From positions 124,001 to 188,000 of the forward strand of contig JAQYVX010000002.1 of the NCBI GenBank assembly GCA_030145305.1: 64,000 nucleotides of DNA. Reading direction: 5' to 3'. Shown piece by piece: positions 24,854-42,606 of this stretch. The notes under the pieces were generated by a model. It saw nothing but the letters and a program-made list of their open reading frames with translations. It searched no databases and was not told where the DNA came from. Every line of letters begins with the position of its first letter. Position 1 is the first letter of the stretch. Made by a program: the position numbers and the translations under genes. The stretch comes from Halarcobacter sp. (GTDB lineage: Bacteria; Campylobacterota; Campylobacteria; Campylobacterales; Arcobacteraceae).

Positions 24854-25258
24854 TTATTTATCTTCAATAAAAAGTTTACCTTTATGATATTGTGCAGCAA
24901 CATCTTTCCCCCATTGAGAACAAAACTCTAAGTTTTCAGGCGATAATTTAAAAATATCATTAATATTTGAAATTAAAGCTTTCTCTTTTAAATCAAATTT
25001 ATCATCAGCATGAATTAAAATCATTAATTCCAAGATTACAATTTTTTTACTTTTTTTTGTTTTAAAATCTTTAAGTACTTCATCTAGTAAAAATTGATCA
25101 TTTTCAAAATTTTCATCATTTTCAATACCCATTTCAGCGCAATATTCTAATATTATTTCTTGTTCTTTTTCTCCATAATCATTATCAATTCGAGCTAAGT
25201 AGTGGGCAAGTTGTAAAAAAGAGAATTTCTCTTTTGTAGAAAGTTTCATTAAAAGCAT
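24854..25258 (-). CDS. TerB-like protein
   Basis: A 134-aa all-helical soluble protein. The pairs DNDYGEKEQEIILEYCAEMGI and ILELMILIHADDKFDLKEKAL have the D..hs..E...I pattern of the TerB family, first known from tellurite resistance and now linked to stress signalling. No other ter genes are close. TAGGA seven bases before the ATG at 25258 supports the start. Function unknown. Confidence 0.6.
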   Translation of the reverse strand: MLLMKLSTKEKFSFLQLAHYLARIDNDYGEKEQEIILEYCAEMGIENDENFENDQFLLDEVLKDFKTKKSKKIVILELMILIHADDKFDLKEKALISNINDIFKLSPENLEFCSQWGKDVAAQYHKGKLFIEDK

Positions 25259-25344: not shown

Positions 25345-25920
25345 CTAATAAACATCATAACGAACAATTTCTTCAAAAAATTTATCCTCAAATTCATAAG
25401 ATAAGGTAAGCTCAAAAGTATCACTATCTACCCATTCATGAAATACAAATTGAGGCTTATCAATATCTTTAAATTCATAAGTTTTACCTTTTAAATATGT
25501 GTTCCAAATATCTCTTTTAAGTCTTCTTTTTACTCTTTTAAATCGACTACTTTCTTTTTTAGAGAAAAGTTCTATTGTTTGTAAATTGTTTGTTTTTAAT
25601 ATATCTACCACTAAAACTTTTTTATCACTTGAAAGATGGGCATTATAATCTAATCCACGAGAAGATAATACATATTCTTTTTTTCCATCAAAAATAAATA
25701 AGAGTCCATCTTCATTTATTATCTTCATCTCTTGAGTATTTATTTCTAGTTTTTTTTTTAAAGTTGAAACAACTTCATTTTTTATAGAAACTTTATTAGT
25801 ATTTTTTAAGTTTTCATTCTTCATAGTAGGAGTTAAAACTTGCTGGCTCTCTGCACATCCAGCAAAAAAAATCAAACTAAATGTTAAAAAAACAAGCTTA
25901 ATATATTTTATTTTTTCCAT
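25345..25920 (-). CDS. Hypothetical lipoprotein, last gene of the giant-protein operon
   Basis: A 191-aa protein with a signal peptide and lipobox FFAGC (Cys at 22). The mature part is polar, basic and beta-rich, without a domain I recognise. It overlaps the FN3 gene stop by 13 bases and has AAAGGAA upstream, so it is cotranslated with the multi-FN3 protein. As a lipoprotein it may anchor other products of this operon to a membrane (inference). Confidence 0.7.
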   Translation of the reverse strand: MEKIKYIKLVFLTFSLIFFAGCAESQQVLTPTMKNENLKNTNKVSIKNEVVSTLKKKLEINTQEMKIINEDGLLFIFDGKKEYVLSSRGLDYNAHLSSDKKVLVVDILKTNNLQTIELFSKKESSRFKRVKRRLKRDIWNTYLKGKTYEFKDIDKPQFVFHEWVDSDTFELTLSYEFEDKFFEEIVRYDVY

Positions 25921-27842
25921 AAAATTTCCTTTGTATCACTTTTCTTTATATTTCCTATTTTATCATAAACCCATAATTGATACCAATATTTTGTGTCTTT
26001 TGACAATGTTTTATCAATATAAGAATTTGTCTTTATAAAATTTGATACTTTATAAAACTCTAGACTTTTTCCACTACTTCTATAAACTTCAAATCCATTA
26101 TAGTCACTATCTTTTACATCTAAAGAAATTTCAATACCTTCTTTAGTTTGAGAATATTTACTACTTTCTATTATAGGAGCTTTTGTATCACTTTTACTTA
26201 ATAAAATATGTTCATTCAAAGAAGATTCGTTTCCATTTTTGTCAACAGATGTTACTATAAACTTTTTTAGACCATTTAAAGTATAGTTATTAAGTTCAAA
26301 TTGCGTTTTTAAAATATTATTAAAATTTAATTTTACCAGTTTATTACCTTCTTGAGTATAAATATTATAATGGCTTAAATCAAAATCATAAATTGGATTC
26401 CACTGTAAATATATTTTATTGGTATATACTTTATACATAGAAAAAATTGGTTGTTTTGGAGCAATTACATCGGGAAGTTTTACAGTGATAATTTTAGAAT
26501 CTATACTTTCATTAAAACGTTTATCTACTGCTGTTACTTTATAATAATAATGAAATCTACTTAAACCTTTTGGCAAGACATGAGTATAACTATTATTTTT
26601 GATTATCTCATCATTAACTCTTGCATAATATTTATCATCTTTTTTCATTGAAAAGTAAATGCGATAACCAATTAAATTATTATCCTCAATCTTATTCCAA
26701 GTTAAGTTTACTTTTCCCGGACTTACTTCAGTTTTTATATTTTCAACTTTATTTGGTGCCATTACATCTAAGGCTGAAACAAGTCTTTTTGAAGATGGCT
26801 TTGATTCGCCTAAAGGAGATACTGCTGTTACATAATAATAATAATTTCTTCCAGAACTTGTAGTTTTATCAACATAAAAGTTTTTTGTAATATCTTTTAA
26901 ATTTACTTTCTTATACTTACCATTAATCAAATTACTTCTGTAAATATTATAAAAGATTTTTTTATCTTTTGATTCATTCCATAAAAGTTTTACTCTAGAG
27001 TTATTTATAGAAGCATTTAAATATTTAATCTTTGGAGTAGAAAAACCTTCTTTAAAATATGCTGTTACAGGAGAACTATAAGCACTCTCTTCACCAAAAG
27101 AATCTATAGTTGTTACTTTATATTCTGCTGTTTCATATTTTTTAAGTGTTTTATCTTTATATAAAATAGAACTTTTGCCATTTACAATTATTGGGTATTT
27201 ATTAAGCCTTACAAACTTACTTGAAGGACTTTTCTTAATATAAATATTGTATTCATAATATAAAGAATCAACTTGCCAAGTAAAAGTGAAAGCATCCTTT
27301 TCTTCTGTTGCTTTAAGACTTAAAGGTGTAGGAGATAATGCTTTTTTATAAGTATACATATTAAAACTCTTAGAAGCAACTTTCTTATCCTTTTCAAATA
27401 CTTCAATTTCATAAGTATATTTTTGTTTTAGACGTACTGTTTTATCTTCATAATAAGTACCAAAAGCTTTTGCTAATTCTGTTTTAGTTGAAATAATTGA
27501 AGGAAGCATGTTTTTAATATCATTTAAAAAAAGTTTGCTTTTCATCTTTTGTACTAATGTTTTGTCATTTTTATATGGAAAAAGCGCAGATAAAATCTCT
27601 TTATCAAACTTATTCTTCACTTCTTCATATGATTTTTTCTTTAAAGTTGTTAATAATATACGATTGTTATTATTTGTTCTAAAAATCTTATAAGTAAACC
27701 CTCTTTCTAAATCTGGAGTAGTCCATTTTATTAAAATAGCATTACCATCATATTTAGAAAAAACTAGTACTTTATCCTTCATTAATTCACTTGCAGATAA
27801 ATTCATAAAGATAAGATACATAAAAAATAAAATTCTTACCAT
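25908..27842 (-). CDS. Secreted multi-FN3 protein
   Basis: A 644-aa exported protein with an N-terminal signal peptide (ILFFMYLIFMNLSA). It is built mostly of five or six fibronectin type III domains, seen as repeated pairs such as KVNLTWNKIEDNNLIGYRIY ... YYYKVTAVDKRFNES and IYLQWNPIYDFDLSHYNIY. A charged, helix-like insert (residues about 60-125) interrupts the first part. No lipobox, catalytic motif or sortase signal is present. Its ATG overlaps the stop of the giant gene by 7 bases, and that gene's 3' end supplies a GGAGGA ribosome binding site. It is a likely partner of the giant protein at the cell surface (inference). Confidence 0.8.
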   Translation of the reverse strand: MVRILFFMYLIFMNLSASELMKDKVLVFSKYDGNAILIKWTTPDLERGFTYKIFRTNNNNRILLTTLKKKSYEEVKNKFDKEILSALFPYKNDKTLVQKMKSKLFLNDIKNMLPSIISTKTELAKAFGTYYEDKTVRLKQKYTYEIEVFEKDKKVASKSFNMYTYKKALSPTPLSLKATEEKDAFTFTWQVDSLYYEYNIYIKKSPSSKFVRLNKYPIIVNGKSSILYKDKTLKKYETAEYKVTTIDSFGEESAYSSPVTAYFKEGFSTPKIKYLNASINNSRVKLLWNESKDKKIFYNIYRSNLINGKYKKVNLKDITKNFYVDKTTSSGRNYYYYVTAVSPLGESKPSSKRLVSALDVMAPNKVENIKTEVSPGKVNLTWNKIEDNNLIGYRIYFSMKKDDKYYARVNDEIIKNNSYTHVLPKGLSRFHYYYKVTAVDKRFNESIDSKIITVKLPDVIAPKQPIFSMYKVYTNKIYLQWNPIYDFDLSHYNIYTQEGNKLVKLNFNNILKTQFELNNYTLNGLKKFIVTSVDKNGNESSLNEHILLSKSDTKAPIIESSKYSQTKEGIEISLDVKDSDYNGFEVYRSSGKSLEFYKVSNFIKTNSYIDKTLSKDTKYWYQLWVYDKIGNIKKSDTKEILWKK

Positions 27843-30800
27843 GCGCTATATCCTCCTTGATTGTAATATGGTTGATTAGGTGTATAAGTTCCTGGATTAA
27901 CTGTTGAAGGATAATCCGTGTTAGATTCTTCAGGTCTTTCTACATTTTCTAATTTTGGATCTAAGATTACTATTTCTTTAGTAACAACAGGTTCAATTCT
28001 TCCTTCATTTAATAAGGTTCTAAAAGTATTTTCTTCGGCTACATAATACTTCACTCTTGCACTTTTTATTTTTTCTATTCCTTCAAATTCCATTTGATAG
28101 AGATTATCAATTATATTATTATATAAAACTTGATAACTTTTTTCAAAAGTAATCTCTGGATTCAATTCATCTTCAAAAACAACATCAATTACAGAAAAGA
28201 CATTAGGATATTCACTTCTATTTATTCCAGAATACACTGTTATTTTATTTATATTTGGTGAAGGAACTTCTAATTGTTTAAGCGCTAAAGCTCTATGCGT
28301 TTTACAATCTCCACACGTAGCACAAGTTCGAGACATAGGATTTCCATGTTGTGCTGCTATTTGACCTATTCCTTGGTCTGCTGCACAAGGTGGAAATTCG
28401 GGAGCTCTGAACTCAAAACTATTCCAAATCTGTTGATAACGACTACTTTGTCCATCTATAACTTTATTAGTTCGTTCTACTTCAATCTTAGCTTCTAAAG
28501 CATTAATATTGTTTGTAAGATAAACAAATTGATCACCTTGATTTCCAGATTGTTTTGCCTCAAAAGATGAGATAAAGACAACTCTATCTTTACTTTGATC
28601 TATAACTTTTATCATGTATTTACTTGTTGTATAATATGTAAAAGAATCATTTGAAGATGTTGGTGCTCCTAAATTTAAATCGGTAAATAACTCAGATGAT
28701 ATTCCTAACGATAAAGCAGTAGGTCTATTTACATTCGCAGAAGCAGTACCAAATCTAGCAGTAGAATTCAAACTTCTAGTAGAGTTTGCACTCATTTGTA
28801 CATCTGATGTATTAGTATTATTTACTTCTTCTCCATCTACTGAATATTCTCTAAATGGATTATAATATTTTCCATCTGAGCGTATAACTGTCTCTTTTAT
28901 TTCACCTGTTGTATTATTTAAACAAAAATGATAAGAAGAAAAAGGCTTATTAGGAGTAAAGACTTTTAAAATTAAATTAGCTGGATTAGATGATGAATAA
29001 GTACTATCCCAAGTACCTGGAACATCTTTATTTTTACCATCAATTACTTTTATAATATAGTTATTCACCATACTTGTTAATCCTTTTGCTTTATCTGAAT
29101 ACCTAATATAAACTTTAGCTCTAGCACTTACATCTTTTTCACTAGCTTTTGGTTCAATCTTACTAACTAGTTCACTAAAAGATAATATTGGTTCAGCAGT
29201 TGTAGTAAATATTTTCTCAATAGAATCAATTCTTTCTAATACATCAGTTCCAACATTATTTTTACTTAACCATTGAACATTAGCAGTAAACTTATATTCA
29301 GTATTTGGATTTAAAGGATTTGGCGGCATGTAAGTTATAGTTTGTTCATCTACTCTTTTTGGATAAAGATTAATTCGTGTTGTAGGATTACTTGTTTTAA
29401 CTAGCTTACTATTAACTATAGAAAAAGTATAATCCTTATTTGCAATATTTGTAACTGTTCCATCATTTGGTACAAATGTTCCAATTTTAATAATTGGTTT
29501 TAAAGATATTTCCGTATCACCATAAGGCTCAACATCCTTAAGTATGTTTATATTTGCTTCATCTGAAGCACTTGGTTTACTTCCCACTACATAAAAAGTA
29601 TGACTTGCACATTTACCAAATCCACAACCTCTTAAATATAGACTAAACATAGTAGGGTTTGGTGTTCTAAATCTTACTTTTCCATCAACACTTGCTAAAT
29701 CAAACCAACCATACACAGGGACTCTAGCTTCTATAGCCATTCGTAAAGTAGCTTGTAAATCTATATATACTTTTCTTCCAAATCCAGCTTCAACATCAAA
29801 ACCAATTAGAGTATCATAACCAACACCAAAGCCCCATTTACTGTATTTTTTACTTGATGTAAACCTACTTCCTATTGCAAATAAATCACTTTCTAAAACT
29901 AAATATGATTGAGCTTCAGCTAAATCAAATATTCTTGAAGTAATAGGCTCAGCTTTTGTACCAATATGAATATACTTTCTAGCACTTGTATAGGCAAGAG
30001 CACCATTTCCATGTAAGTGAACCAGTTCAAAATCTGAAGCAAGATATTTAATATTCATTCCACCATCAACAGAAATCTCAAAAGGAGAAGTTCCTAATAC
30101 AACTTCTGCAGTTATTATTCTTTCTTCTGGACTTAAGTTTAAATCACTTAAAAGATAAGATACACCTGTTAATGTTGTAGTACCTGAACCTAAATCTAAA
30201 TCAACTCCTAAGTTTCCATGCCAGGTATATCCTACATCACTTGTACCCATTTTAATAAGTCCTGAAACAATAATATTATCAGTTCCAGTTGGAACAAAAG
30301 TAGATGTAAAACTACCTTCTGGTCTAACTATTTCCATACCATATGCTGCCCCACCGCCAAAGCCATAGAGCGATATAGGAATTGGAGTTAAAGGAACTCC
30401 TGCTGTACTTGTATAAATAGCTCTTGCCATCCAATATCGACTTGAATTTTTCTCACCTATTTTAAAATCACCTTCAACATTAAATATTCCACCAATACCT
30501 AAGTTTAGACCACTAGCAGAGAAACCCTCTCCATATGTAACATCACCATCATACCAATCAAATTTACCAGACATTACAATTGCTGGTTCACTTACATTAA
30601 GTTCAATTTGATTAATATCGTATGTGCCATTACTATAAAAAGTCATTCCAGCACCAGCTTCAGTAATACCTAATCCTAATAAACCAGAAGCTTTAAAAAA
30701 TAAAAGTTTATCCGAAACTTTATAACCAAGTCCAAGTTCTGTCAAAGTTAAAGTCATACCTGCCAAATTAAAACTAGCACCAGTGATTGTTTTTGTTGAA

Positions 30801-33800
30801 GAAATTGAATCTACACTTATTCCACTTCTTGAGATTTCTAATCCATCAAACTCAACAGCACTTAAAGACTTTAATAAGTCATGTGTAGGTTGAAGTGTTC
30901 CATTAAAAGAAAGAGAGAAATCTTCCATATCTAAATTACTTGTCACACCTAATAAATTCATATTTGCAAAGTTTTGTATTGGTATTGATTGTAAAGCATT
31001 TGAATCTAATGTGAATTTATCTATTCCCTCTAATGAGAGTTGTGCTCCCATATCAAAAATAAACTCTGTTTCAGAGCCTAAAAAGCCATCTTTTGAATAA
31101 TGCATTTTAATATTTCCTGATACATTAGATGTATCAACAAAATTAACATTAAGCTCATTAATATCTAAATTATCTATTGATGTTGATAATTTTGTACCCT
31201 CTGCTAATCCAATTTCTCCGGATACACCTTTTGATGAAATAGTAAATTCACCTAATTCAAGATTTATATTTTCCCATTCTTTATAGCCAAAGTTTCCATT
31301 TAGACTCATTGAAAGTTTACCTAAAGAATCAATATTAAAAGCTCCACTTAAATTTTTAAATTCAAACCTATTATCTTTTCCTAGATGTAAAATTTCAGTA
31401 CCAAAATCAAATATAAGCTTGGAATTAGCGAAACCTAAGGCTGTTTTTGCATAATTTTTAGACTCATTAAATAAAACAGATAAATCAACATTCCCAACTA
31501 TACTATTAAGTTTTATAGGTATACTTGCTTTTGAATCAATACTAACTCCAATAGAAGTTAAAGAAAGGCTAACTTTATCACCAAAGAAGGTATGCTCTTG
31601 AATAGGTGAGAATGTTGTAGAAAGATTTGCTTTAAAACCTGATGTATTAATTTTAAGTCCACTTAAATCAATATTAGAAACACCTATATTTTTCATAATA
31701 TCAGTAAAAAATTGTGCATTTCCTGTAAATTTAACTTCATAAGAGCCATTGACTTTTTTAATACTTCCTGTTGGGTTTATAATTTTCAATGAAGTGTTTT
31801 CGTATGTATAATTTAATGTTTGAGTAGAAGAAAAAGTATATTTACCTCCATCATATGCTAAAGTAATTGGCTCTACATTAGCATCAAAAAGTTTATTACC
31901 TAAGAATAATGTCCCAGCTGCTGAACTAATCTGCGACCCAGAGGAACCCGTACTTGCATTAATATTAAATAATGCAACTCTAACATCTTCATCTTCTGTA
32001 CCTAAATCTAATACTGTAAAATCAGTGCTTGCATTTTTAAGTGCCAAATTCCATTTAATACCTGATTTTGAAATTGTTGCTTTTTCAACTTCTACTAAAG
32101 CATCAAAATTAAAACCTTCTAAAGTATAATTACTAAAATCAGCTGTAGTATGAAAATCAATAATTGGATTTATTAAACTTTTTAGATTAACTTCTCCTCC
32201 AATATTAGAAACCATTATAGAACCATTTCCATCAGATAAAAAGTTGTGTGAACTTGATAAGTTCCAAGTATAAATACCATTAAAGTCTTGAATCTTTTTA
32301 ACAGCAGAGGCAACTTCTTTAAATTCTTTTACCTTAGATTGTATTTTTGTAGCACTTGATGTAGCTAAATTTGTTGCAGTTAAATTTCTAGCATTATTAA
32401 AACTATTTTTTAAAGCACTTATCTGACTATTAGCTTTTTTATTCAAGGTTAAAATTTGTCCTCCAAGTAATTCACCAAAATCAATACTTGCAGAAATATT
32501 TTCTACTCCAAAATCTATACCTTCTCTATTTACAGCAAAAGCAAAAGTAGGAGTTACACCATTATTAAAAACCAATTTAACCTGTTTCTCTTGATAAATC
32601 ATAATATCATCAAGTTGTGCTGATAACTTAGTTTCAAATGATGATTTTGTTATTTTTGCATCTATTAAAGATATATCTCCAATTTGCTCAAACCTCGTAG
32701 AGTAAGTACTTAAATTTATAGCACCATCGAGTTCTATTATTGGATTTCTAATATCACTTAAATTTAATGAACCATATAAATTTTTTAGAGCAATAGTTGT
32801 ATCAAGTAATTTTTTTTCTGTATTCCCTAAATTCCAAGAAAAAGTACCGGAACTTAAAGTTTGGATCTCTGCTTTTGCATTTTTAATCAATGTACCAAAG
32901 TCAAGGTCTGCATTAAATTCATCTAAACTTAATTGAAAGCCACTTGATAATACACTTAAAGATAACTTCTGAATATCATTTTCATCAAAATCAAGCTTTA
33001 CATTTTTTTCATTCCAAATTGGTATATCACTTAATTGTGTTTCAATTTGTGAAGAAAAACCTTTTTTTGATATATGAGCATTTATAAGTTCGACATTTTG
33101 AACATATGAATGTAAAAAGCTACTTTCATTAAATGCTACATTTGCATTTAATGAAATAGAAGGATTTGATAAAGTAGAAAAATCAATTGTTCCCATTAAA
33201 GTACTTAATGAAACTTCATTCCCATATAAATTATAAGAACCTGTAAGTTCCCACGAATATATCGAATTATCTTCAATAAAGGATTGACCCTCATTTGTTA
33301 TATCTTCAGCAGTAGAAATTGCATCTTGTACATCAGAATTATTTAAAACTCTTCCAATTGTTGCTCTAGCATCAGGTAAAAGTGTACCAAAATCAATAGA
33401 AGCATCTAAATTTGATAAACCAACTTTATATCCATTTGTTGTAAGAGAAAACTTTAAAGTAGGATTCTTATTGAATTTTAATTTCACATTTTTATCTTTA
33501 TAAATATTTATATTATTTATTTCTAAAGAAGTTTGTGCACTTAATCCCTTTTTTGAAATCTTAGCATTCATTATTTTTGCATTATTTATACTAGCTAGTG
33601 ATCCACCATAAGCACTTAAATTTAAGTCTGAATTAAAAGTTATACTTGGGTTTTCAAAATCTAATAAATCAAGTTTTCCACTTAAATTATTTAATACAGC
33701 TTTTGCATCTGATACAATTTTTTTGCCATCACTTAAAGACCAAGAATAAGTATTGTTAATGATATTACCTGTTTCATCTTTTAAGGCAGTTAACTCTGCT

Positions 33801-36031
33801 GTAGCTTTATTAAATAAATCTCCAAAATCTAATGATGCATTTAAATTATTTAAAGAAAAGTCTAATTTATCACTTATAATTAAAGAAAAACTAGGGGTTT
33901 TAGAAAAACTAAGTTTAACTTTTTTTTCATCCCAAATATTAATATCTCTAAGACTTGCCATTGCTGTTGCCTCTAAACCAGCTTTTGAGATTAAGGCATT
34001 TGATATAGAAAGATTTCTAACTTGAGATAAGATTCCTGTATATCCTGATAGTTTTAAATTTGAAGAAAAAGATATTTTAGGATTAGCTAAATTTGATAAA
34101 TCTAAAGACGCAGCTAATTGTTCCAATTTATTTTTTTGATTTAACAAATATATAACTTTTGAATTATCAAAAGTTAAATTCATAATACCATCTTCTAAAC
34201 CATCTAAACTTGCAACAGTATCAGGTAAAAGTGTACCAAAATCAACACTAGCAGATAATCCATCAAAGCCAAAGTTTAATTCTCCAGATGAACTAAGACT
34301 TAAATTTAAAGAAGGCATACTCTCTTCAGCAAAATGAAGTTTAACTCCTTTTTCTTTCCAAATATCTAAAGAATCAATTAAAATACCTAAATTAGCAGAT
34401 AATCCATCACTTGAGATTTGTGCATTTGAGATTGCAGCGCTTTTTACTTTTTCAATTAATCCACCATAAGAACTTAAATCAGCATTTGCATTAAAAGTAA
34501 CAATCGGTTTTGTAAGTTTAGATAAATCTAATTCTCCTGATAGTTGATCTAAAATAATATTAGCATCACTTTTAAGATTTTTACCTTCAGCTAATGCCCA
34601 AGAAAAATTAGATGCTATAGATTCCCCTACTTCGTCAATAAGAGGTGTTAAACTTGCTGTTGCTGAATCAAATAAATTTCCAAAATCTATTTGCATATCA
34701 CCTGTATTAATATCTATATCAAGTCCAGAAGTTTTTAACTCTAAGCCTATATCAATTTGACCATCAAATACTAATCTAACATTTTGTTCATCCCAAATTG
34801 ATATAGGATCTAGATTTGTAGAAAATGTTGAACCTAAACCATTTTTAGAAATTACCATATTTTCAGCTGTTATATTATTCATATTTGAAAACAATTCACT
34901 ATATTCGCTTAAATCTAAAGTAGTATTAAAAATAATCTTTGGATTACTAAAGTCATTTAAATTAAGAGTTCCTATAGTATTTGATAAAAATACATTTTTA
35001 TCATTTATTAATTTTTTCCTAGAACTCTCTGCCCATTCAAATATACCATTTATATTTTTACCAAATTCATCTTTTTTCATAGCTAAAGTTTTTTGCGATG
35101 AACCTAATAAATTACCAAAATTAAGAGATGCATCTAAGTTTGATATATTTAGCCTAAGTCCAGTAGTCATAAGTAATGAAAAATTAAGACTTAGACTTCT
35201 AAAAGCTATTTTAACATCTTGTGCAGACCAAATATTAAAATTAAAAGTATTGGAATAATCTATTGTTCCAACTATTCCTTTTGTGTCAAAAGATAAAGAA
35301 GTAATATCTACATTAGGAAGAGAAGACAATAAAACATTTGAAGTTGATGAAAGTTTTGAGACAAGACTATTTCCTGTATTATTTGCATTAAAAACAAGTT
35401 CTGAAATATCAAGTTTAATATCTTCATAATTTATTGTCATATTAGATAAATAAGAAATAAATCCTGAAGTAATTCTATCTTCTGTAAATCCAAGATTTTC
35501 AAAACTTACGTCAATATTTCCATTAAGACCAAAACTTTCGAGCCAAGGTACATAAAGAGAACCTGATCCGGAAGTAATTCTATCTCCCTCACGTACATAA
35601 TCATTTGCTAAAGTTAAAACAAAACCTGAAATATTAAATTGAGAAGGAAATTCATTGTTATTATCTAAGGTTGAACTCTCTCTAACAATACGTAAAGAAA
35701 ATGCATATGTAAATCCAAGTTTAGGAGTAAAAGAAAACTCCCAATCTTTATGACCACTTGTTCTTTTCCAACTTTTTCCACCATTCTTACTTATTTCAAC
35801 AAATAAATCATTTTCATCTACATTTTTATCAGTAGACTCAAGAAGTCCTTGAATAATAATCTTTCCATTCTGTAAATCTTCTTCATAAAACTCAATAGTT
35901 CTTTGTTCTAATGATTCGAATTCTCTACCATTTATGGTTATATCATCAACAAAACCTATATCATCAGCATTTTGTACATTTCCAAATAAAGAAATATTTA
36001 GCAAAACTAAAATTATTATTCTTTTTAACAT
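27836..36031 (-). CDS. Giant secreted repeat protein (2731 aa)
   Basis: Not a family I can name. It has a signal peptide (MLKRIIILVLLNISLFG) and then about 150 residues of Ig or sialidase-like beta structure. Next come about seven tandem repeats of roughly 143 residues (residues about 170-1290). Each has the order DIxIWDEKNVKLxF, a hydrophobic strand pair, NLDASIDFGTLL, FSWSL, LSGxLDLSxLxNPxIxFN and ISKKGL. A second beta-rich, glycine-containing region follows (about 1290-2150; IPISLYGFGGGAAYGM). Near the C-terminus are Ig-like modules (TFVPNDGTVTN; PLNPNTEYKF) and a cysteine cluster at about 2548-2580 (CATCGDC). GAGGGAG precedes the ATG. There are no TM segments besides the signal. Possible roles are an adhesin, a surface filament or an envelope-spanning rod. 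Confidence 0.85.
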   Translation of the reverse strand: MLKRIIILVLLNISLFGNVQNADDIGFVDDITINGREFESLEQRTIEFYEEDLQNGKIIIQGLLESTDKNVDENDLFVEISKNGGKSWKRTSGHKDWEFSFTPKLGFTYAFSLRIVRESSTLDNNNEFPSQFNISGFVLTLANDYVREGDRITSGSGSLYVPWLESFGLNGNIDVSFENLGFTEDRITSGFISYLSNMTINYEDIKLDISELVFNANNTGNSLVSKLSSTSNVLLSSLPNVDITSLSFDTKGIVGTIDYSNTFNFNIWSAQDVKIAFRSLSLNFSLLMTTGLRLNISNLDASLNFGNLLGSSQKTLAMKKDEFGKNINGIFEWAESSRKKLINDKNVFLSNTIGTLNLNDFSNPKIIFNTTLDLSEYSELFSNMNNITAENMVISKNGLGSTFSTNLDPISIWDEQNVRLVFDGQIDIGLELKTSGLDIDINTGDMQIDFGNLFDSATASLTPLIDEVGESIASNFSWALAEGKNLKSDANIILDQLSGELDLSKLTKPIVTFNANADLSSYGGLIEKVKSAAISNAQISSDGLSANLGILIDSLDIWKEKGVKLHFAEESMPSLNLSLSSSGELNFGFDGLSASVDFGTLLPDTVASLDGLEDGIMNLTFDNSKVIYLLNQKNKLEQLAASLDLSNLANPKISFSSNLKLSGYTGILSQVRNLSISNALISKAGLEATAMASLRDINIWDEKKVKLSFSKTPSFSLIISDKLDFSLNNLNASLDFGDLFNKATAELTALKDETGNIINNTYSWSLSDGKKIVSDAKAVLNNLSGKLDLLDFENPSITFNSDLNLSAYGGSLASINNAKIMNAKISKKGLSAQTSLEINNINIYKDKNVKLKFNKNPTLKFSLTTNGYKVGLSNLDASIDFGTLLPDARATIGRVLNNSDVQDAISTAEDITNEGQSFIEDNSIYSWELTGSYNLYGNEVSLSTLMGTIDFSTLSNPSISLNANVAFNESSFLHSYVQNVELINAHISKKGFSSQIETQLSDIPIWNEKNVKLDFDENDIQKLSLSVLSSGFQLSLDEFNADLDFGTLIKNAKAEIQTLSSGTFSWNLGNTEKKLLDTTIALKNLYGSLNLSDIRNPIIELDGAINLSTYSTRFEQIGDISLIDAKITKSSFETKLSAQLDDIMIYQEKQVKLVFNNGVTPTFAFAVNREGIDFGVENISASIDFGELLGGQILTLNKKANSQISALKNSFNNARNLTATNLATSSATKIQSKVKEFKEVASAVKKIQDFNGIYTWNLSSSHNFLSDGNGSIMVSNIGGEVNLKSLINPIIDFHTTADFSNYTLEGFNFDALVEVEKATISKSGIKWNLALKNASTDFTVLDLGTEDEDVRVALFNINASTGSSGSQISSAAGTLFLGNKLFDANVEPITLAYDGGKYTFSSTQTLNYTYENTSLKIINPTGSIKKVNGSYEVKFTGNAQFFTDIMKNIGVSNIDLSGLKINTSGFKANLSTTFSPIQEHTFFGDKVSLSLTSIGVSIDSKASIPIKLNSIVGNVDLSVLFNESKNYAKTALGFANSKLIFDFGTEILHLGKDNRFEFKNLSGAFNIDSLGKLSMSLNGNFGYKEWENINLELGEFTISSKGVSGEIGLAEGTKLSTSIDNLDINELNVNFVDTSNVSGNIKMHYSKDGFLGSETEFIFDMGAQLSLEGIDKFTLDSNALQSIPIQNFANMNLLGVTSNLDMEDFSLSFNGTLQPTHDLLKSLSAVEFDGLEISRSGISVDSISSTKTITGASFNLAGMTLTLTELGLGYKVSDKLLFFKASGLLGLGITEAGAGMTFYSNGTYDINQIELNVSEPAIVMSGKFDWYDGDVTYGEGFSASGLNLGIGGIFNVEGDFKIGEKNSSRYWMARAIYTSTAGVPLTPIPISLYGFGGGAAYGMEIVRPEGSFTSTFVPTGTDNIIVSGLIKMGTSDVGYTWHGNLGVDLDLGSGTTTLTGVSYLLSDLNLSPEERIITAEVVLGTSPFEISVDGGMNIKYLASDFELVHLHGNGALAYTSARKYIHIGTKAEPITSRIFDLAEAQSYLVLESDLFAIGSRFTSSKKYSKWGFGVGYDTLIGFDVEAGFGRKVYIDLQATLRMAIEARVPVYGWFDLASVDGKVRFRTPNPTMFSLYLRGCGFGKCASHTFYVVGSKPSASDEANINILKDVEPYGDTEISLKPIIKIGTFVPNDGTVTNIANKDYTFSIVNSKLVKTSNPTTRINLYPKRVDEQTITYMPPNPLNPNTEYKFTANVQWLSKNNVGTDVLERIDSIEKIFTTTAEPILSFSELVSKIEPKASEKDVSARAKVYIRYSDKAKGLTSMVNNYIIKVIDGKNKDVPGTWDSTYSSSNPANLILKVFTPNKPFSSYHFCLNNTTGEIKETVIRSDGKYYNPFREYSVDGEEVNNTNTSDVQMSANSTRSLNSTARFGTASANVNRPTALSLGISSELFTDLNLGAPTSSNDSFTYYTTSKYMIKVIDQSKDRVVFISSFEAKQSGNQGDQFVYLTNNINALEAKIEVERTNKVIDGQSSRYQQIWNSFEFRAPEFPPCAADQGIGQIAAQHGNPMSRTCATCGDCKTHRALALKQLEVPSPNINKITVYSGINRSEYPNVFSVIDVVFEDELNPEITFEKSYQVLYNNIIDNLYQMEFEGIEKIKSARVKYYVAEENTFRTLLNEGRIEPVVTKEIVILDPKLENVERPEESNTDYPSTVNPGTYTPNQPYYNQGGYSAW

Positions 36032-36053
36032 AAGGACTCCCTCATTTATTTTA

Positions 36054-37631
36054 TTAGAAATTATATACGTATGATAATTTCCCTATATGTTCATTGTAAC
36101 TACTAGCTGAATCATCTTCAACGTCATTATCTTGTTTTTCTAACAATAATCTAACTGTTTGCTTACCTTTATCATCTAATCGATAAGTAGTTCTAAATTG
36201 ATAAGTAGAATTAACTGAATCATTGGAATCATCTCTATATGTATTTCTAGAAACATATGATAAGTCCATAGATAGTTTTTTATTTACTTGATATCCCGCA
36301 TCAAGTTTTAAACCATACCTATCTTGGTCATTTCCATTTTGACTGACATTTTGTGCATCAACAGTTGCAGTTATACGATATGAACTTTCACCTTCAAGTT
36401 TTTGTTTATATCCTATGATAAACCTAACATTATTAATTGTTTGAGAAGAACTTGCAGTATTAGAATCTGTTAAGTCTGAATAATCGTAACCTAAACCATA
36501 TCTAAAGCCAGTTGTTGTTCTATAGTTTCCATTAACTCCAGCTGTAAATTGATTCGTATTTGCACCTCTTCCTTGAACATCTTTATTTGTAAATTTAAAA
36601 TCAACAGTTGCTCTTTTTATTGATTCAGGTTTATATAAAAAACTTAAAGATTCATAATATGTGTTTTGAGTATCTCCTAAGGCACCATCTAAATTATCTC
36701 TACTTGATTTCAAACTTAATTTAGTAGTTAATTGTTTATTTATTGTCCAAGAAGTTGAATTTTCAAGTTTTTCATTATCTGCATTAACTGAACCTGCTGC
36801 TGATATAAAATCTGCAGATATTCTTTTATACATAAAATTACTTTTTACAGAAGAAAGTACAGGTCTTGTTAACAATCTTAATTGTATTGCATTTTCAGTT
36901 TCTGAGTCTTTGTCTCCTCTTAAATCATCTGTACTATGAGATACGGCCGCACGACCTTTTAAAGTTATATACTTATTAAATCTCCATTTTGCATCAATTC
37001 CAAGTGTTGTTCCCTTTTTTCCTGGAGCTGTCTCGTTATATCCGCTGCTAAGATCATTTTTTAAAGTTGCTAAACTAAGAGTAATCTCTTTTGCTCTTTC
37101 ATATGTATAATTAGCTTCAAAAGCAGCTACATAAGTATCAAGACCTTCATCTTCTACAGTTTGATATGTTTCTCTCCATTGGGCTTTTCTTACACCTGTA
37201 ATAAACTTATAATCCCATTTATCATCTTTTTTACTACTTTTATATTCGGTTTTTATTCCCTTAACTGATCCACCAAAAACATATGGATTCATAGAAGCTG
37301 CTACATCCCCTATTTCATGGTTCCAAATTTTATCAGTGAAATATCCTTTTAAAAATAAAAGATGTTCATTGTTTTTTTGAACACGCTCATCATTAGATTC
37401 TCTTACTCTTGCCTCAATACTAGCATTTCCATGATATAGTGGCCCATGGAATTTAATATCAAGTTCATGTGATTGAGTAAACCCTTCTTTACTATTTGTT
37501 CCATTCTCAACATCTACATTTTGTAAATACCCACTAAGTCTTCCCTCAACTATCCATTTGTCTTCTTGTTTAAAATCAGACGCACTTACTATACTTACTA
37601 GTCCAATCAATGTTAGGTTTAAATATTTCAT
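36054..37631 (-). CDS. Outer-membrane beta-barrel protein
   Basis: A 525-aa protein with a signal peptide (LNLTLIGLVSIVSAS). The mature chain consists of alternating polar/hydrophobic strands with short turns and ends in YVYNF, the terminal aromatic residue that BAM recognises. Many strands pair as in a large porin-like barrel of around 20 strands or more. Paralogy to MtrB/PioB barrels is possible in outline, but the CxxC of MtrB is absent. It sits between the CARDB-protein gene and the giant gene with gaps of 8 and 22 bases, so it is a candidate outer-membrane conduit or anchor for the giant protein (inference). Confidence 0.8.
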   Translation of the reverse strand: MKYLNLTLIGLVSIVSASDFKQEDKWIVEGRLSGYLQNVDVENGTNSKEGFTQSHELDIKFHGPLYHGNASIEARVRESNDERVQKNNEHLLFLKGYFTDKIWNHEIGDVAASMNPYVFGGSVKGIKTEYKSSKKDDKWDYKFITGVRKAQWRETYQTVEDEGLDTYVAAFEANYTYERAKEITLSLATLKNDLSSGYNETAPGKKGTTLGIDAKWRFNKYITLKGRAAVSHSTDDLRGDKDSETENAIQLRLLTRPVLSSVKSNFMYKRISADFISAAGSVNADNEKLENSTSWTINKQLTTKLSLKSSRDNLDGALGDTQNTYYESLSFLYKPESIKRATVDFKFTNKDVQGRGANTNQFTAGVNGNYRTTTGFRYGLGYDYSDLTDSNTASSSQTINNVRFIIGYKQKLEGESSYRITATVDAQNVSQNGNDQDRYGLKLDAGYQVNKKLSMDLSYVSRNTYRDDSNDSVNSTYQFRTTYRLDDKGKQTVRLLLEKQDNDVEDDSASSYNEHIGKLSYVYNF

Positions 37632-37639
37632 AATTGTCC

Positions 37640-38449
37640 CTAGTTAAGTATATATTCATTATTTGATTCATCATCTTCTTCAATGAAATTATTAGGGTCA
37701 ACAATCACTGTATTACCGTTATAGCAATCACCATTTTTATTTATAAGAATACTTTGTCCAGGAGTTAAATTTCCAACATATTCAAAGGTAGAGAAAAAGG
37801 CACTTCCACCGTAATAAATACTTCCACTTGTAGTTGCACTATCTCCGATATTTGTAATTGTAATATCAATTGGCATTGCTCCCCCGAAGCCTGATGAACA
37901 GTTTGCCAAAATAATAAGATCAGGTAGCCCTTTTTCCAAAGGAATTACGTCGGGTTCTTGTCCTGCAATTTGTGGAACTTCTTCTTTCCAATCTGATAAA
38001 GAATTTCCCCATAAATGATTTCCTGCTAATTCTATTAACTTATATTGACCATTTATCTCGTCAAATAAAAATCTTGAATATCCTCTTTGATTAAGTTGAG
38101 TTCTTCCATCATTTGTTTCATAACGTTTTTCCCATCTTACATAAAGATATCTTTTTACTCCATCAGTTGTGATTTTATCAATCCAAGTATCAACACTTAC
38201 AATTTCATATTTTCTAAAATCTTCATCAATTGCTTCTGAAAAAGTCATATAATCTTGAATAAAACGTTCTTCTGATATTAATTTAAAAAAAGCATGAGAA
38301 TCTTCTTCCTCATAATTTTGCATCAACTCACTAAATACAATCTTCACTTTATCATCTCTTGATTGATCAAGAACGATAATATCTTTATCATAGTCACTAC
38401 TTGCATGTAAATTAAATAGTAAAGCAATAAGTATTAAAATTTTTGCCAT
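37640..38449 (-). CDS. Exported protein with C-terminal CARDB-like domain
   Basis: A 269-aa protein with a signal peptide (AKILILIALLFNLHAS). Residues 25-160 form an alpha/beta domain (KIVFSELMQNYEEED; YLYVRWEKRYET) of the NTF2-like kind in outline. After a proline-containing linker, the C-terminal 90 residues form a CARDB-like beta-sandwich (LPDLIILANCSSG ... PIDITITNIGDSATTSGSIYYGG, ending FIEEDDESNNEYIL). The ATG at 38449 was chosen over upstream codons because GGAGG lies seven bases before it. It is the first gene of the operon behind a promoter with tandem 11-bp repeats. Confidence 0.78.
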   Translation of the reverse strand: MAKILILIALLFNLHASSDYDKDIIVLDQSRDDKVKIVFSELMQNYEEEDSHAFFKLISEERFIQDYMTFSEAIDEDFRKYEIVSVDTWIDKITTDGVKRYLYVRWEKRYETNDGRTQLNQRGYSRFLFDEINGQYKLIELAGNHLWGNSLSDWKEEVPQIAGQEPDVIPLEKGLPDLIILANCSSGFGGAMPIDITITNIGDSATTSGSIYYGGSAFFSTFEYVGNLTPGQSILINKNGDCYNGNTVIVDPNNFIEEDDESNNEYILN

Positions 38450-38477
38450 TTCTTTCCTCCGCATAATAATATAATTA

Positions 38478-38514
38478 ATTGTAAGAAGTAACTGTTGCAA
38501 AAATGTTGCAAAAA
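38478..38514 (-). promoter_or_regulatory. Promoter with two perfect tandem 11-bp repeats
   Basis: On the plus strand TGTTGCAAAAA occurs twice back to back (38493-38503 and 38504-38514). On the minus strand a TACAAT -10 box (38483-38478) follows nine bases downstream of the repeats, so they cover the -20 to -45 region. Adjacent direct repeats with 11-bp spacing are the usual binding mode of OmpR-type regulators, and one is encoded immediately upstream. Confidence 0.6.
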
Positions 38515-38558
38515 CAAGAAAAATGATGATTAATTATGTAAAAAGAAGATTTTGAAGT

Positions 38559-39242
38559 TTATATATTGATTCGATATCCAAAAGAAGGAATTGTTTCAAT
38601 GAATTTATATTTTATTTTAGAACGTAATCTACTAACTAAAGCTCTACGAGTGCTTTCATTTGGAGCTTTATCAGGCCAAATTTCATTTTCCATTTCATAG
38701 ATTGAGACTATTGAATTTTTAGATTTGATTAAAAGATTTATTAATTGAACTTCTCTTTTTGTAAGATGAATATACTCACAATAATGTATTAATTGTGAGT
38801 TTTTTGTATCATATGAAAACTCATCATCGAATATTAAATCTCCTTTTTTTAAGATTAAATCCTTTTTATTCTTCTCATAAGTATATGCGGCGATTCTTAA
38901 TGAAGCAAATAATTCTTTTTTATTAAATGGTTTTGTTAAATATCCACTAGGATTAGTTTTGATAGCTCTACCTACTGTTTCTTCATCACAATAAGCTGTC
39001 AAATAAATAATAGAAGTATTTAATTCATTTAATATTTTTGTAGCTGCATCTATTCCATCAATTTCACCTTTTATTTTTATATCCATTAAGATAATGTGAG
39101 GTTTATAGTCCAGGGCTAATTCATAAGCACTTTTTGCATTATTTGCTATACCTATTACACTAAAATTTAAAGAACTTAAATAACTCTCTATTTCCATTGA
39201 AACAATACTTTCATCTTCTACTATCAAAATTGGCGTTTTCAT
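38559..39242 (-). CDS. Two-component response regulator, OmpR-like
   Basis: A 227-aa regulator. The receiver domain (1-120) has the acidic pair E9-D10, phosphoacceptor D54 in ILMDIKIKG and the lysine in YLTKPFNKKE. The C-terminal winged-helix DNA-binding domain includes LTKREVQLINLLIKSKNSIVS and ends ETIPSFGYRI, the OmpR/PhoB pattern. Its ATG overlaps the kinase stop by 4 bases. The giant-protein operon begins about 110 bases downstream on the same strand, making that operon its probable target (inference). Confidence 0.9.
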   Translation of the reverse strand: MKTPILIVEDESIVSMEIESYLSSLNFSVIGIANNAKSAYELALDYKPHIILMDIKIKGEIDGIDAATKILNELNTSIIYLTAYCDEETVGRAIKTNPSGYLTKPFNKKELFASLRIAAYTYEKNKKDLILKKGDLIFDDEFSYDTKNSQLIHYCEYIHLTKREVQLINLLIKSKNSIVSIYEMENEIWPDKAPNESTRRALVSRLRSKIKYKFIETIPSFGYRINI

Positions 39243-41008
39243 ATTCTAAACCTTATATTATATTCACATTTATTTATAATATTTTCTTCTATCTTTCCAG
39301 AGAGTTGATCAACGACTAAATTATTTACCAAGAGCAAACCTAAAGATTTTTTTGATATATTTTTTTTATCATAACCGGAGCCATTATCAATAATATCTAA
39401 ATAAAAATACTCTTCTTTTTTATATAAGTTTATAGTTATTTTATCACAAGAAGAAGCATACTTAATACTATTTGTAAGCAGTTCATTTATTATAATGCCA
39501 ATATAAACTGCTTCTCTTAAGGGCATTTTCACTTCTGTTCTAATAGTAGTATTAATGCTATTGTTATCAAAAGAAATATTAACATCTTCACTTAAACTAT
39601 ATATATATTCATACATATCAATTTTTTCAATATCATCATTCAAATATAAAATTTCATGAGTTTTTGCTATTGATTTTATACGATTTTCCAGTTTTTGAAA
39701 TTGTTCTTTCAAAATATTATTATTGAACTTATCCCCTTGCAGTCTAATTATTGATAGCATAATTTGTAAATTATTCTTTACTCTATGATGAAGTTCTCTA
39801 TAAAGATTATTTAACATTTTTGTTCTACTTTTTACTTCTTGCTCAACAATTATATTTCTTTTTTGTAATTCATCTAATAACTTTTTATCTGTATCATTTT
39901 TTTCTTTTTGTAAGATACTTAGTTTATCAACAAAAGCTAAAAGTAAAAAAAATGCTTCAAAAGTTGTACAAAGTAAAACTAAACTTGTCATATTATACAT
40001 AATAGAGTAAATACCCAAAGCATCTATTATTGATAAAAAAAAGCCAAAAAGAACAAATCCCCAGCCAAGTATAAAAAATCTTGCTTGCTTATTTCCTTTT
40101 TTATAAACATAAATGGCTGCATAAAAATTAAAAATAATAAAAAATAAACCTGTTAATACAGTAATTTCTGGATAATAAAAATATGGTGTTGATAAAAAAA
40201 GAATTTGTAGAAATACAATAAAAATAAGAATTTTATAAACTTTATCTATTTTAGGATAAAACTTAGTTTTTAGAAAACTCCTTGCAAAGATTATTGCAGA
40301 AATAATTATAATTCCAACTTTAGGAACAACTATTAAATTATCTATATAGGTAAACTCTCTTGGCATATATAAAGGTAAAAAGCCTACATATGTTAATTGT
40401 TGAAAAAGCAAAGCTAAAATATAAAATGCATAAAGAAAATAGCTTCTATCTTTTGTAAAAAAATATAAAGCTATTGCATATATTAAAAATGCAATTATTG
40501 CTCCTGCAAATAAAATTATAAGAAATTGATTTTGCCTATCTTTTTTAAATTCACTTTCTTTGTCTAATAAGTTTATAGAAAACTGTAATGCCGTTGTTGA
40601 ATTTAAAATTTTTAGATAATAAGTTTTGTTGCTTCTCTTATCAATACTAATTTTAAAAGATGGATTTATAAATTTCCTAGAATCATCTATATATAACATT
40701 CCTGATTTATAAATTTCATTATTTGAATACAAAAATATTTTTTCTAATAAAGGATTATTAATCTCTAAAATCTTATCTATACTAATGTTTGAATTATTCC
40801 GAATATCAAGCTTTATCCATACTATACTTTTTTGGGCAAAACCTAAATTAACATGCTTCTCAGATAAATTTATAAAATCTTTTTTTATACTATTTTCATA
40901 AGTTTGATTATTTTTATCAATATAAATTGATTGTTTTATTTCTAACTTAGATATGTCAGAATAGAGAATTGATATAAAAAGAATTAATATTAAAATAGTT
41001 TTTTTCAT
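39239..41008 (-). CDS. 7TMR-DISM sensor histidine kinase (HisKA_2 type)
   Basis: A 589-aa membrane kinase with a signal peptide and a periplasmic 7TMR-DISMED2 carbohydrate-binding-like domain (to about 175: LGFAQKSIVWIKLDIRNNS). Seven TM segments (about 180-365) follow, then a coiled coil and a HisKA_2 dimerisation domain with phosphohistidine motif ELHHRVKNNLQ near residue 405. The HATPase domain has ELLTNSIKYA (N box) and DNGSGYD (G1 box). The DISM domain suggests a soluble carbohydrate-like or envelope ligand. It is coupled to the following response regulator. Confidence 0.9.
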   Translation of the reverse strand: MKKTILILILFISILYSDISKLEIKQSIYIDKNNQTYENSIKKDFINLSEKHVNLGFAQKSIVWIKLDIRNNSNISIDKILEINNPLLEKIFLYSNNEIYKSGMLYIDDSRKFINPSFKISIDKRSNKTYYLKILNSTTALQFSINLLDKESEFKKDRQNQFLIILFAGAIIAFLIYAIALYFFTKDRSYFLYAFYILALLFQQLTYVGFLPLYMPREFTYIDNLIVVPKVGIIIISAIIFARSFLKTKFYPKIDKVYKILIFIVFLQILFLSTPYFYYPEITVLTGLFFIIFNFYAAIYVYKKGNKQARFFILGWGFVLFGFFLSIIDALGIYSIMYNMTSLVLLCTTFEAFFLLLAFVDKLSILQKEKNDTDKKLLDELQKRNIIVEQEVKSRTKMLNNLYRELHHRVKNNLQIMLSIIRLQGDKFNNNILKEQFQKLENRIKSIAKTHEILYLNDDIEKIDMYEYIYSLSEDVNISFDNNSINTTIRTEVKMPLREAVYIGIIINELLTNSIKYASSCDKITINLYKKEEYFYLDIIDNGSGYDKKNISKKSLGLLLVNNLVVDQLSGKIEENIINKCEYNIRFRI

Positions 41009-41150: not shown

Positions 41151-41846
41151 TTATGCACCTAAATATTTTTTTCTAATTTCGTCAGAAGAAATTAATTTTG
41201 AAGCTACATCTTCAAGTGCAACTTCTCCATTTTCCAAAACATAAGCATAATCAGAAATTTCAAGTGCCGCGAAAGCATTTTGTTCTACAAGTAAAATTGT
41301 AATACCTTCTTCTCTAAGTTTTGTAATAGTTTCAAAAAGTTCACCTACTATTTTTGGCGCTAAGCCTAAAGAAGGTTCATCTAACATTAATAATGTTGGA
41401 GAACTCATAAGTGCCCTAGCAATTGCAAGCATTTGTTGTTCCCCTCCACTCATAGTTCCACCTAGTTGTCCTTTTTTTGCAATTAACCTAGGAAAAAGTT
41501 TAAACATTCTTTCTTGTAATTCTTCATATCTCTCACTATTATTAAAAGCACCCATTCTCATATTTTCTTCAATTGTCAAGTTTTGAAATACTCTTCTTCC
41601 TTCTGGAACTAAAGAAATTCCTTCTTGAATAATATGATGTGTTTTCAAATCCGAAATTGTTTTATCTTTAAAATGAATATCACCAGTTTTTTTAACATCA
41701 TTTACAATTGATTGTAAAGTTGAAGTTTTTCCTGCACCATTAGAACCAATTAAAGAGACAATTTGTCCCTCTTCAACATCGATATTTATACCTTTTACAG
41801 CTTTTATTAATCCGTAATATACTTCTAAATTTCTAATCTTAAGCAT
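41151..41846 (-). CDS. livF: Branched-chain amino acid ABC transporter ATPase LivF
   Basis: A 231-aa ABC ATPase of the LivF type. It has Walker A SLIGSNGAGKT near residue 40, signature MSGGEQQMLAIARALM, Walker B LLMLDEPSLGLAP and the LivF-specific ISLVPEGRRVF and LLVEQNAFAALEIS. It energises uptake with LivG. The start at 41846 (MLKIRNLEVYYG) gives an 8-base overlap with livG; a few upstream codons in frame are less likely. It is the last gene of the operon, before a terminator. Confidence 0.95.
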   Translation of the reverse strand: MLKIRNLEVYYGLIKAVKGINIDVEEGQIVSLIGSNGAGKTSTLQSIVNDVKKTGDIHFKDKTISDLKTHHIIQEGISLVPEGRRVFQNLTIEENMRMGAFNNSERYEELQERMFKLFPRLIAKKGQLGGTMSGGEQQMLAIARALMSSPTLLMLDEPSLGLAPKIVGELFETITKLREEGITILLVEQNAFAALEISDYAYVLENGEVALEDVASKLISSDEIRKKYLGA

Positions 41847-42606
41847 GTTTAAAATCTCCAAGGTAAGCTTTTATAACTTCTTCATTTTTAATTGCATCTT
41901 TGATATCACCTTCAAAGATTGTTTTCCCATAATCTAAGACCATAACTCTATCACACAGTTTATTTACAAATTTCATATCATGTTCAATTAATAAAATTGT
42001 AACATCAAACTCATCTCTAATTTTAAAGAAAAGTTCTGCTAGTTCATGTGTTTCTTGGGGATTCATACCAGCTGCTGGCTCATCTAAAAGTAGAAGTTGT
42101 GGGTTTGCAGCAAGGGCACGAGCAATTTCAACTTTTCTCTGACTTCCATATGAAAGAGAAGTTGCTAATTCATCTGCAAACTCAGCAATTCCTAAAACCT
42201 CCATAATTTCAAAGGCTCTTTCTCTTACTCTTCTTTCTTCTTTAAAAAATCTAGGTAGTCTAAGTATTGCTTCAAAATATGTGTACGTAGCTTGATAATC
42301 AAATCCAATTAAGACATTATCCAAAACTGTCATAGATTTAAATAATCTAATATTTTGGAATGTTCTAGCAATTCCTCTATGTACAACTTTATAAGGTTTA
42401 ATACCATCAATTCTTTGTCCATGAAATTTAACAGAACCAGCTGTTGGCTCATAGTTTCCTGTAATTATATTAAACATTGTTGTTTTACCAGCACCATTAG
42501 GGCCAATAAGTCCATAAATCTCTTTTAAATTTACATGAAATGAAGTATCTTTAATTGCAGTTACTCCACCAAATTTTTTAGTTACATTGCAAACTTCTAA
42601 AATCAT
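41839..42606 (-). CDS. livG: Branched-chain amino acid ABC transporter ATPase LivG
   Basis: A 255-aa ABC ATPase with Walker A LIGPNGAGKTTMFNIITG, the LivG-type IARTFQNIRLFKSMTVLDNVLIG, signature SYGSQRKVEIARAL, Walker B LLLLDEPAAGMNP and the H-loop LLIEHDMKFV. It pairs with LivF on the cytosolic side of the LivHM permease. Its ATG overlaps the livM stop (ATGA). Confidence 0.95.
   Translation of the reverse strand: MILEVCNVTKKFGGVTAIKDTSFHVNLKEIYGLIGPNGAGKTTMFNIITGNYEPTAGSVKFHGQRIDGIKPYKVVHRGIARTFQNIRLFKSMTVLDNVLIGFDYQATYTYFEAILRLPRFFKEERRVRERAFEIMEVLGIAEFADELATSLSYGSQRKVEIARALAANPQLLLLDEPAAGMNPQETHELAELFFKIRDEFDVTILLIEHDMKFVNKLCDRVMVLDYGKTIFEGDIKDAIKNEEVIKAYLGDFKHA

What the first reader, a model, noticed from the sequence alone, without database searches (positions are those of the whole stretch)
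25345..41008. Candidate undescribed surface system: kinase/regulator plus CARDB protein, beta-barrel, giant repeat protein, FN3 protein and lipoprotein
Seven same-strand genes form a self-contained unit, and the five downstream genes overlap or nearly touch. Every product of the operon is predicted to be exported, including one outer-membrane barrel, one very large rod-like protein and one lipoprotein. The sensor has a 7TMR-DISM periplasmic domain. This is what a regulated secretion or surface-display machine would need, and I know of no named system with these parts.
Basis: partly seen in the sequence, partly recalled or inferred. Interest (0 to 1): 0.65.

Follow-up and report, generated by a model that had tools for sequence, protein, structure and literature searches.

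The report
Undescribed four-gene outer-membrane giant-protein operon
A set of genes for a wide outer-membrane pore, a small partner protein, a giant repeat protein and the giant's companion occurs in the same order in 13 of 13 fully visible loci in two bacterial phyla, and looks like an undescribed machine that shows exchangeable giant proteins at the cell surface, although nobody has tested what it does.

Summary
In detail: seven same-strand genes at 25345-41008, with CARDB, barrel, giant, FN3 and lipoprotein genes overlapping or nearly touching. The conserved unit is smaller than reported. Four genes (CARDB-barrel-giant-FN3) keep this order in 13 of 13 fully visible loci in Campylobacterota and Desulfobacterota. 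Among 214 Desulfuromonadia genomes the 11 with the giant are exactly the 11 with the barrel. The two-component pair is Campylobacterota-only and variable. The lipoprotein was seen only in the window's family. In the window's genus the unit is an island missing cleanly from 9 of 15 readable sites.

The barrel is predicted as 26-stranded (pLDDT 89). The giant has a constant Ig-like N-domain, nine ~145-aa repeats and a beta-rich core. Giant body and FN3 partner were exchanged together behind that N-domain while barrel and CARDB stayed. In a sister system the giant's N-domain is fused to the CARDB protein's conserved domain, beside a related barrel and large proteins with a constant C-terminus and unalignable bodies.

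Best reading: an undescribed outer-membrane platform that docks constant domains and exports or displays variable giant cargo. Conservation and architecture are shown; surface location and transport are inferred. No known secretion class fits.

The parts
39239..41008 (-). Sensor histidine kinase (7TMR-DISM extracellular + 7TM, HisKA_2/HWE); accessory regulator
   Evidence: same gene in the related Campylobacterota loci; absent in Desulfobacterota loci
38559..39242 (-). OmpR-type response regulator; accessory regulator
37640..38449 (-). CARDB protein (core gene 1): signal peptide, conserved ~150-aa domain without a Pfam name, C-terminal CARDB domain
   Evidence: adjacent to the barrel in all loci
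37955..38395 (-). Conserved domain of the CARDB protein (residues ~19-165), found fused to the giant's N-domain in the sister system
36054..37631 (-). Outer-membrane beta-barrel (core gene 2), 26 predicted strands, C-terminal F
27836..36031 (-). Giant exported protein, 2731 aa (core gene 3)
35672..35974 (-). Constant Ig-like N-domain of the giant (residues ~20-120)
   Evidence: also present behind FecR in L038/L039/L069
31232..35284 (-). Nine tandem ~145-aa repeats of the giant (residues 250-1600)
29582..31234 (-). Beta-rich C-terminal core of the giant (residues 1600-2150); related giants have sub-threshold DUF6603 matches
25908..27842 (-). FN3-domain exported protein (core gene 4), co-travels and co-diverges with the giant body
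25345..25920 (-). Lipoprotein (lipobox FAGC), accessory, seen only in the window's family

Best explanation
An undescribed outer-membrane platform for variable giant proteins. All products are made with signal peptides and would cross the inner membrane by Sec (inferred). The barrel forms a wide 26-strand outer-membrane channel (predicted). The CARDB protein and the giant's Ig-like N-domain form a docking complex at the barrel (inferred from their fusion in the sister system and their strict company). The body of the giant, a long beta-repeat chain, is then passed through or held by the barrel and exposed at the surface, with the FN3 protein as its dedicated companion or cap (inferred). Body and FN3 protein can be replaced together while the platform and N-domain stay. 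Local two-component systems (7TMR-DISM kinase here; FecR domain on the giant plus CHASE2 kinase elsewhere) tune expression or sense assembly.
For: Gene order CARDB-barrel-giant-FN3 in 13/13 fully visible loci in two phyla; giant and barrel genome sets identical, 11 = 11 of 214, p about 1e-18 if genomes were independent. Passenger exchange: RR, CARDB and barrel put the window with L011/L012 (71-86% identity) while giant and FN3 put it with L007/L009 (65-72% against 34-41%); trees conflict with strong support (barrel 98/97, giant body 100/100); identity to L012 falls from 92/78% to 38% right after the N-domain. Sister-system fusion of the N-domain (98%, 5e-15) with the CARDB protein's conserved domain (98%, 2e-13) next to a related barrel. 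There, the neighbouring 1078-1403-aa proteins share a constant C-terminus (41-92%) with bodies at 10-23%; two tandem ones at L084 are 92% against 21%. Repeat number varies 3, 4, 5 with length 2669, 3214, 3634 aa. Barrel model 26 strands, pLDDT 89.
Against: No localisation data. The giant shows an amphipathic beta pattern and its model matches LptD, ApoB and barrel sheets rather than known adhesin rods, which could mean a hydrophobic groove or a membrane-embedded part. No plug, POTRA or usher-like domain was recognised on the barrel, so how cargo would be driven through is unknown. The sister system's constant C-terminus is only weakly tied to the CARDB protein's domain (54% to the fusion protein, 4% to the CARDB family directly).
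Confidence: 0.5

Rival explanations
1. A hydrophobic-substrate bridge: the giant is a long amphipathic beta groove in the periplasm that carries lipid or another hydrophobic substrate to the barrel, working like TamB/AsmA-type or Lpt proteins.
For: Beta-amphipathicity of repeats and core well above shuffles (Z 5-10), like DUF748/AsmA controls; Foldseek's best matches are ApoB100 and LptD; DUF748 genes lie directly upstream in two Desulfuromonas loci.
Against: The giant has a signal peptide and no transmembrane anchor, unlike AsmA-like proteins. The body swaps and diverges to 34% while the barrel stays at about 80%, odd for a transport bridge. Model pTM is 0.38 and TM-scores are about 0.1.
Confidence: 0.2
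2. A periplasmic or outer-membrane sensing and scaffold complex: the giant stays in the periplasm, anchored to the barrel, and reports envelope state to the kinase.
For: A FecR domain is fused to the giant in L069 and to the N-domain in L038/L039, always with a CHASE2 protein nearby; FecR + CHASE2 kinase + regulator is a known signalling set (PMC5192318). The kinase heads the operon in the window.
Against: Regulators are missing from all Desulfobacterota loci. A 2700-3600-aa repeat protein of variable length is hard to justify for sensing.
Confidence: 0.15
3. A trans-outer-membrane conduit like MtrCAB, with the giant or another protein inside the barrel.
For: The best structural match of the barrel is MtrB (Z 20.2, 444 residues aligned, rmsd 5.6).
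Against: No CxxCH haem motif in any product checked; no profile relation to MtrB_PioB (6%).
Confidence: 0.05
4. Ordinary exported proteins that happen to be neighbours.
For: Ig-like, FN3 and CARDB domains are common.
Against: Strict order in two phyla, identical genome sets, co-divergence of giant and FN3, fusion of two parts.
Confidence: 0.03

Closest known systems
Two-partner secretion (type Vb, FhaC/TpsA)
   Same: A large exported beta-repeat protein encoded beside its own outer-membrane barrel, with a constant N-terminal domain on the cargo
   Different: Barrel has 26 predicted strands and no POTRA domains recognised; the N-domain is Ig-like; two further regular partners (CARDB protein, FN3 protein)
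Type IX secretion
   Same: Cargo with variable bodies and a constant terminal domain (seen in the sister system)
   Different: No Spr/Por genes found beside it; the constant domain matches no named CTD; found in Campylobacterota and Desulfobacterota
Chaperone-usher pili
   Same: Wide barrel with the FimD/PapC usher among its better structural matches (Z about 17-18); Ig-like partners
   Different: 26 strands, no usher plug or N/C domains recognised, no pilin or PapD-type chaperone; cargo is one giant protein
MtrCAB conduit
   Same: Barrel fold closest to MtrB (Z 20.2)
   Different: No haem proteins; no profile-level sequence relation
FecR/CHASE2-kinase operons such as BiofilmReg (PMC5192318)
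   Same: FecR domain, CHASE2 histidine kinase and regulator in the Sulfurospirillum version
   Different: Here FecR is fused to the giant; BiofilmReg as described has no barrel, CARDB, giant or FN3 gene

Membership tests
Two-partner secretion (type Vb) | 16-strand TpsB barrel with POTRA domains, and TPS domain on the cargo | tested here: not met
   Pfam finds no POTRA/TpsB or TPS domain; barrel model has 26 strands starting at residue 27 with no periplasmic domain before it
Type IX secretion | T9SS CTD on cargo and Spr/Por genes | tested here: inconclusive
   No T9SS CTD or Por match in Pfam/NCBIfam for the window's proteins; the rest of the genome was not scanned for Spr/Por genes
Chaperone-usher | Usher with plug and N/C domains, PapD-like chaperone, pilins | tested here: not met
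   No such Pfam matches; barrel lacks extra domains
MtrCAB / MtrB_PioB | MtrB_PioB sequence family | tested here: not met
   No PF11854 match in the barrel; hhalign probability 6%; PF11854 hits in the same genomes lie elsewhere
MtrCAB / MtrB_PioB | Multihaem cytochrome partners | tested here: not met
   0 CxxCH motifs in the module proteins of 10 loci
AsmA/TamB/DUF748 bridge proteins | N-terminal membrane anchor and family match | tested here: not met
   Signal-peptide-like N-terminus, no other strongly hydrophobic segment; no AsmA/TamB/DUF748 Pfam match
AsmA/TamB/DUF748 bridge proteins | Hydrophobic beta groove fold | tested here: inconclusive
   Amphipathic beta pattern present; model confidence too low to decide
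DUF6603 | PF20248 match above the gathering score | tested here: not met
   Best 20.8 bits against a cut-off of 27, in related giants only

The most novel reading that the evidence does not exclude
A new type of outer-membrane secretion or display pathway: a 26-strand pore whose substrates carry a constant Ig-like docking domain and a freely exchangeable giant body with its own cognate FN3 partner, with a sister branch in Desulfobacterota in which a constant domain sits at the C-terminus of hypervariable cargo.
Probability: 0.35. Interest if true: 0.85.

Novelty: categorically new. Interest (0 to 1): 0.62.

Why it matters
If the platform reading is right, it adds an outer-membrane export or display route unrelated to the named types, in sulfur- and metal-cycling bacteria whose surface machinery is poorly known. 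The natural passenger swap gives a ready experiment: body and FN3 partner are separable from the platform at a mapped junction. Even without that, it assigns four gene families of unknown function to one strictly conserved unit and links them to FecR/CHASE2 signalling.

Tried and rejected
Peptide-pattern search of the genome collection with the giant alone found nothing; the CARDB alignment succeeded. No hit of the barrel on plasmids, no RNA family or tRNA in the window, so no sign of a plasmid or tRNA-borne island. Solved-structure sequence searches found only CARDB-type domains for the CARDB protein and nothing meaningful for barrel or giant. The promoter scan gives as many sites as shuffles, so no operon promoter is claimed. 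Viral structure search of the giant gave no usable match. Text searches of the open-access library found no description; subscription papers are not covered. An Mtr-type conduit was taken seriously because of the fold match and dropped for lack of haem motifs and sequence relation. I first called the CARDB protein's conserved domain 'NTF2-like' from its pattern; no database match supports that name, so it is not used as a claim.
Full report
WHAT IS THERE. The window lies in a 3.0-Mb genome whose relatives at this locus are Campylobacterota. Pfam confirms a 7TMR-DISM histidine kinase (HisKA_2), an OmpR-type regulator, a CARDB protein, a weak barrel match and FN3 domains; the 2731-aa giant and the lipoprotein match no family. 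All five downstream products begin with a signal-like segment, the last with a lipobox, and the barrel ends in F. Gaps and overlaps between the five are between -13 and +22 bp.

CONSERVATION. In the window's family 5 of 104 genomes carry the giant, and the same 5 carry the barrel. Four of them show the whole seven-gene order; the fifth lies on a short contig that agrees as far as it goes. Another family of the order has kinase-regulator-CARDB-barrel-giant-FN3 in a different genomic place, with a broken second copy of the CARDB gene. A scan with the CARDB alignment reached Sulfurospirillum, Sulfurimonas, Desulfuromonadaceae, Desulfoluna and Desulforapulum. All loci long enough have CARDB then barrel, and where there is a giant and the contig continues it is followed by the FN3 gene. 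To avoid the bias of that query I searched with the giant's body only in Desulfobacteria and Desulfuromonadia; all contigs long enough again show the four genes in order. In total 13 loci show all four genes and all 13 have the same order: window, L007, L009, L011, L027, L063, L069, L045/L062, L064, L131, L132, L134, L136 (L063 has one extra PKD/CARDB lipoprotein gene in between). In 214 Desulfuromonadia genomes the 11 with a giant are the 11 with a strong barrel match, chance about 1e-18 if genomes were independent, which related genomes are not. One Desulfobacteria genome has CARDB and barrel without a giant (L082).

ISLAND. In the window's genus, 9 of 15 genomes whose site could be read have the amino-acid ABC gene (41151-41861 here) directly beside the TerB-like gene (24854-25258), with nothing between; two have an unrelated gene, one is rearranged, three carry the module. 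So the seven genes were gained or lost as one block.

TWO CO-TRAVELLING PAIRS. Among the five close loci, the regulator, CARDB and barrel genes group the window with L011/L012 (71-86%), while giant and FN3 group it with L007/L009 (65-72%; only 34-41% to L011/L012). The trees disagree with strong support. In L012 the first 120 residues of the giant are 92/78% identical to the window and the next stretch drops to 38%. The giant body, with its FN3 partner where that can be seen (L011), was therefore exchanged behind a constant N-domain (L012's contig ends before the FN3 gene). Consistently, where the body is missing (L038, L039: FecR plus N-domain, then a CHASE2 protein) no FN3 gene follows, while CARDB and barrel remain.

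SISTER SYSTEM. Distant barrels in Desulfobacterota (L068, L084, L085, L086, L088, L191, L193-L195) are followed by a ~440-aa protein that fuses the giant's N-domain (hhalign 98.4%, 5e-15) to the CARDB protein's conserved domain (98.0%, 2e-13). In L084, L191 and L193-L195 1078-1403-aa proteins follow that share a ~118-aa C-terminus (41-92% identity) with unalignable bodies (10-23%); two tandem ones in L084 are 92% against 21%. One body carries nine PASTA domains. This C-terminus resembles the fusion protein's second domain only moderately (54%, and BLAST 3e-6) and the CARDB family hardly at all (4%).

STRUCTURE. The barrel is predicted with 26 strands at pLDDT 89. Its best solved match is MtrB (Z 20.2, 444 residues, rmsd 5.6), with TonB-type receptors and FimD/PapC ushers below it; by profile it is not MtrB_PioB and no module protein has a haem motif. 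The giant has nine ~145-aa repeats in the window and most Campylobacterota giants; in Desulfuromonadia the detected repeats number 3, 4 and 5 in proteins of 2669, 3214 and 3634 aa. Residues 960-2150 are modelled as all-beta at pLDDT 73 and pTM 0.38, too uncertain to name a fold; similarity to LptD, ApoB and barrel sheets and the strong in-out residue pattern suggest amphipathic beta sheet. Related giants give sub-threshold DUF6603 matches.

REGULATION. The 7TMR-DISM kinase and regulator were found only in Campylobacterota loci. In Sulfurospirillum UBA6810 the giant carries an N-terminal FecR domain and the operon ends with a CHASE2 histidine kinase and a regulator. FecR, CHASE2 kinase and regulator form a described operon with a role in biofilm formation in Burkholderia (PMC5192318). 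FecR and CHASE2 are periplasmic sensor domains, which suggests that the giant's N-terminus faces the periplasm (inference).

MECHANISM. Shown: conserved order, identical genome sets, exchange of body with partner behind a constant domain, fusion of the constant domain with the CARDB protein's domain. Predicted: the 26-strand barrel. Inferred: docking at the barrel, passage through or anchoring in it, surface exposure, role of the FN3 protein as companion. I put 0.5 on an export or display platform, 0.2 on a hydrophobic-substrate bridge, 0.15 on a periplasmic sensing scaffold.

NOVELTY. Of the known classes tested, none was met (type IX remains inconclusive because only the window's proteins were scanned), and no paper in the open library describes the system. 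It works like passenger-and-platform systems but shares no recognised platform part with them. I rate it categorically new as a system, with function unproven.

Noticed in passing
window 13624-14904 (+): A second FN3-type lipoprotein with BLAST similarity to the operon's FN3 proteins, encoded apart from the module.
   Followed up: no
L030:4413-12140: A 1915-aa protein with N-terminal CARDB domains and a C-terminal stretch like the giant's core, followed by an FN3 protein, beside an MtrC/MtrF-like multihaem cytochrome and without the barrel: a distant cousin of the giant-FN3 pair.
   Followed up: partly
L043:1-2673 and L132:535-4176: DUF748 (AsmA-like) genes directly upstream of the module in two Desulfuromonas-type genomes; weaker DUF748 matches 4-9 kb away in Desulfoluna.
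   Followed up: partly
L032, G144:C135:20586-20765: A stop-interrupted scrap of the giant's N-domain with no module nearby, possibly a remnant.
   Followed up: no
L136:18750-19184: A small exported protein whose start looks like a FecR domain just upstream of the module, suggesting FecR coupling also in Desulfuromonadia; not tested against Pfam.
   Followed up: no
L182-L190: Weak barrel-profile matches inside 1870-2015-aa open frames in nine Desulfuromonadia genomes.
   Followed up: no
L191:5413-9624: A sister-system passenger with nine PASTA domains, a cell-wall-binding type unexpected in such an exported protein.
   Followed up: no
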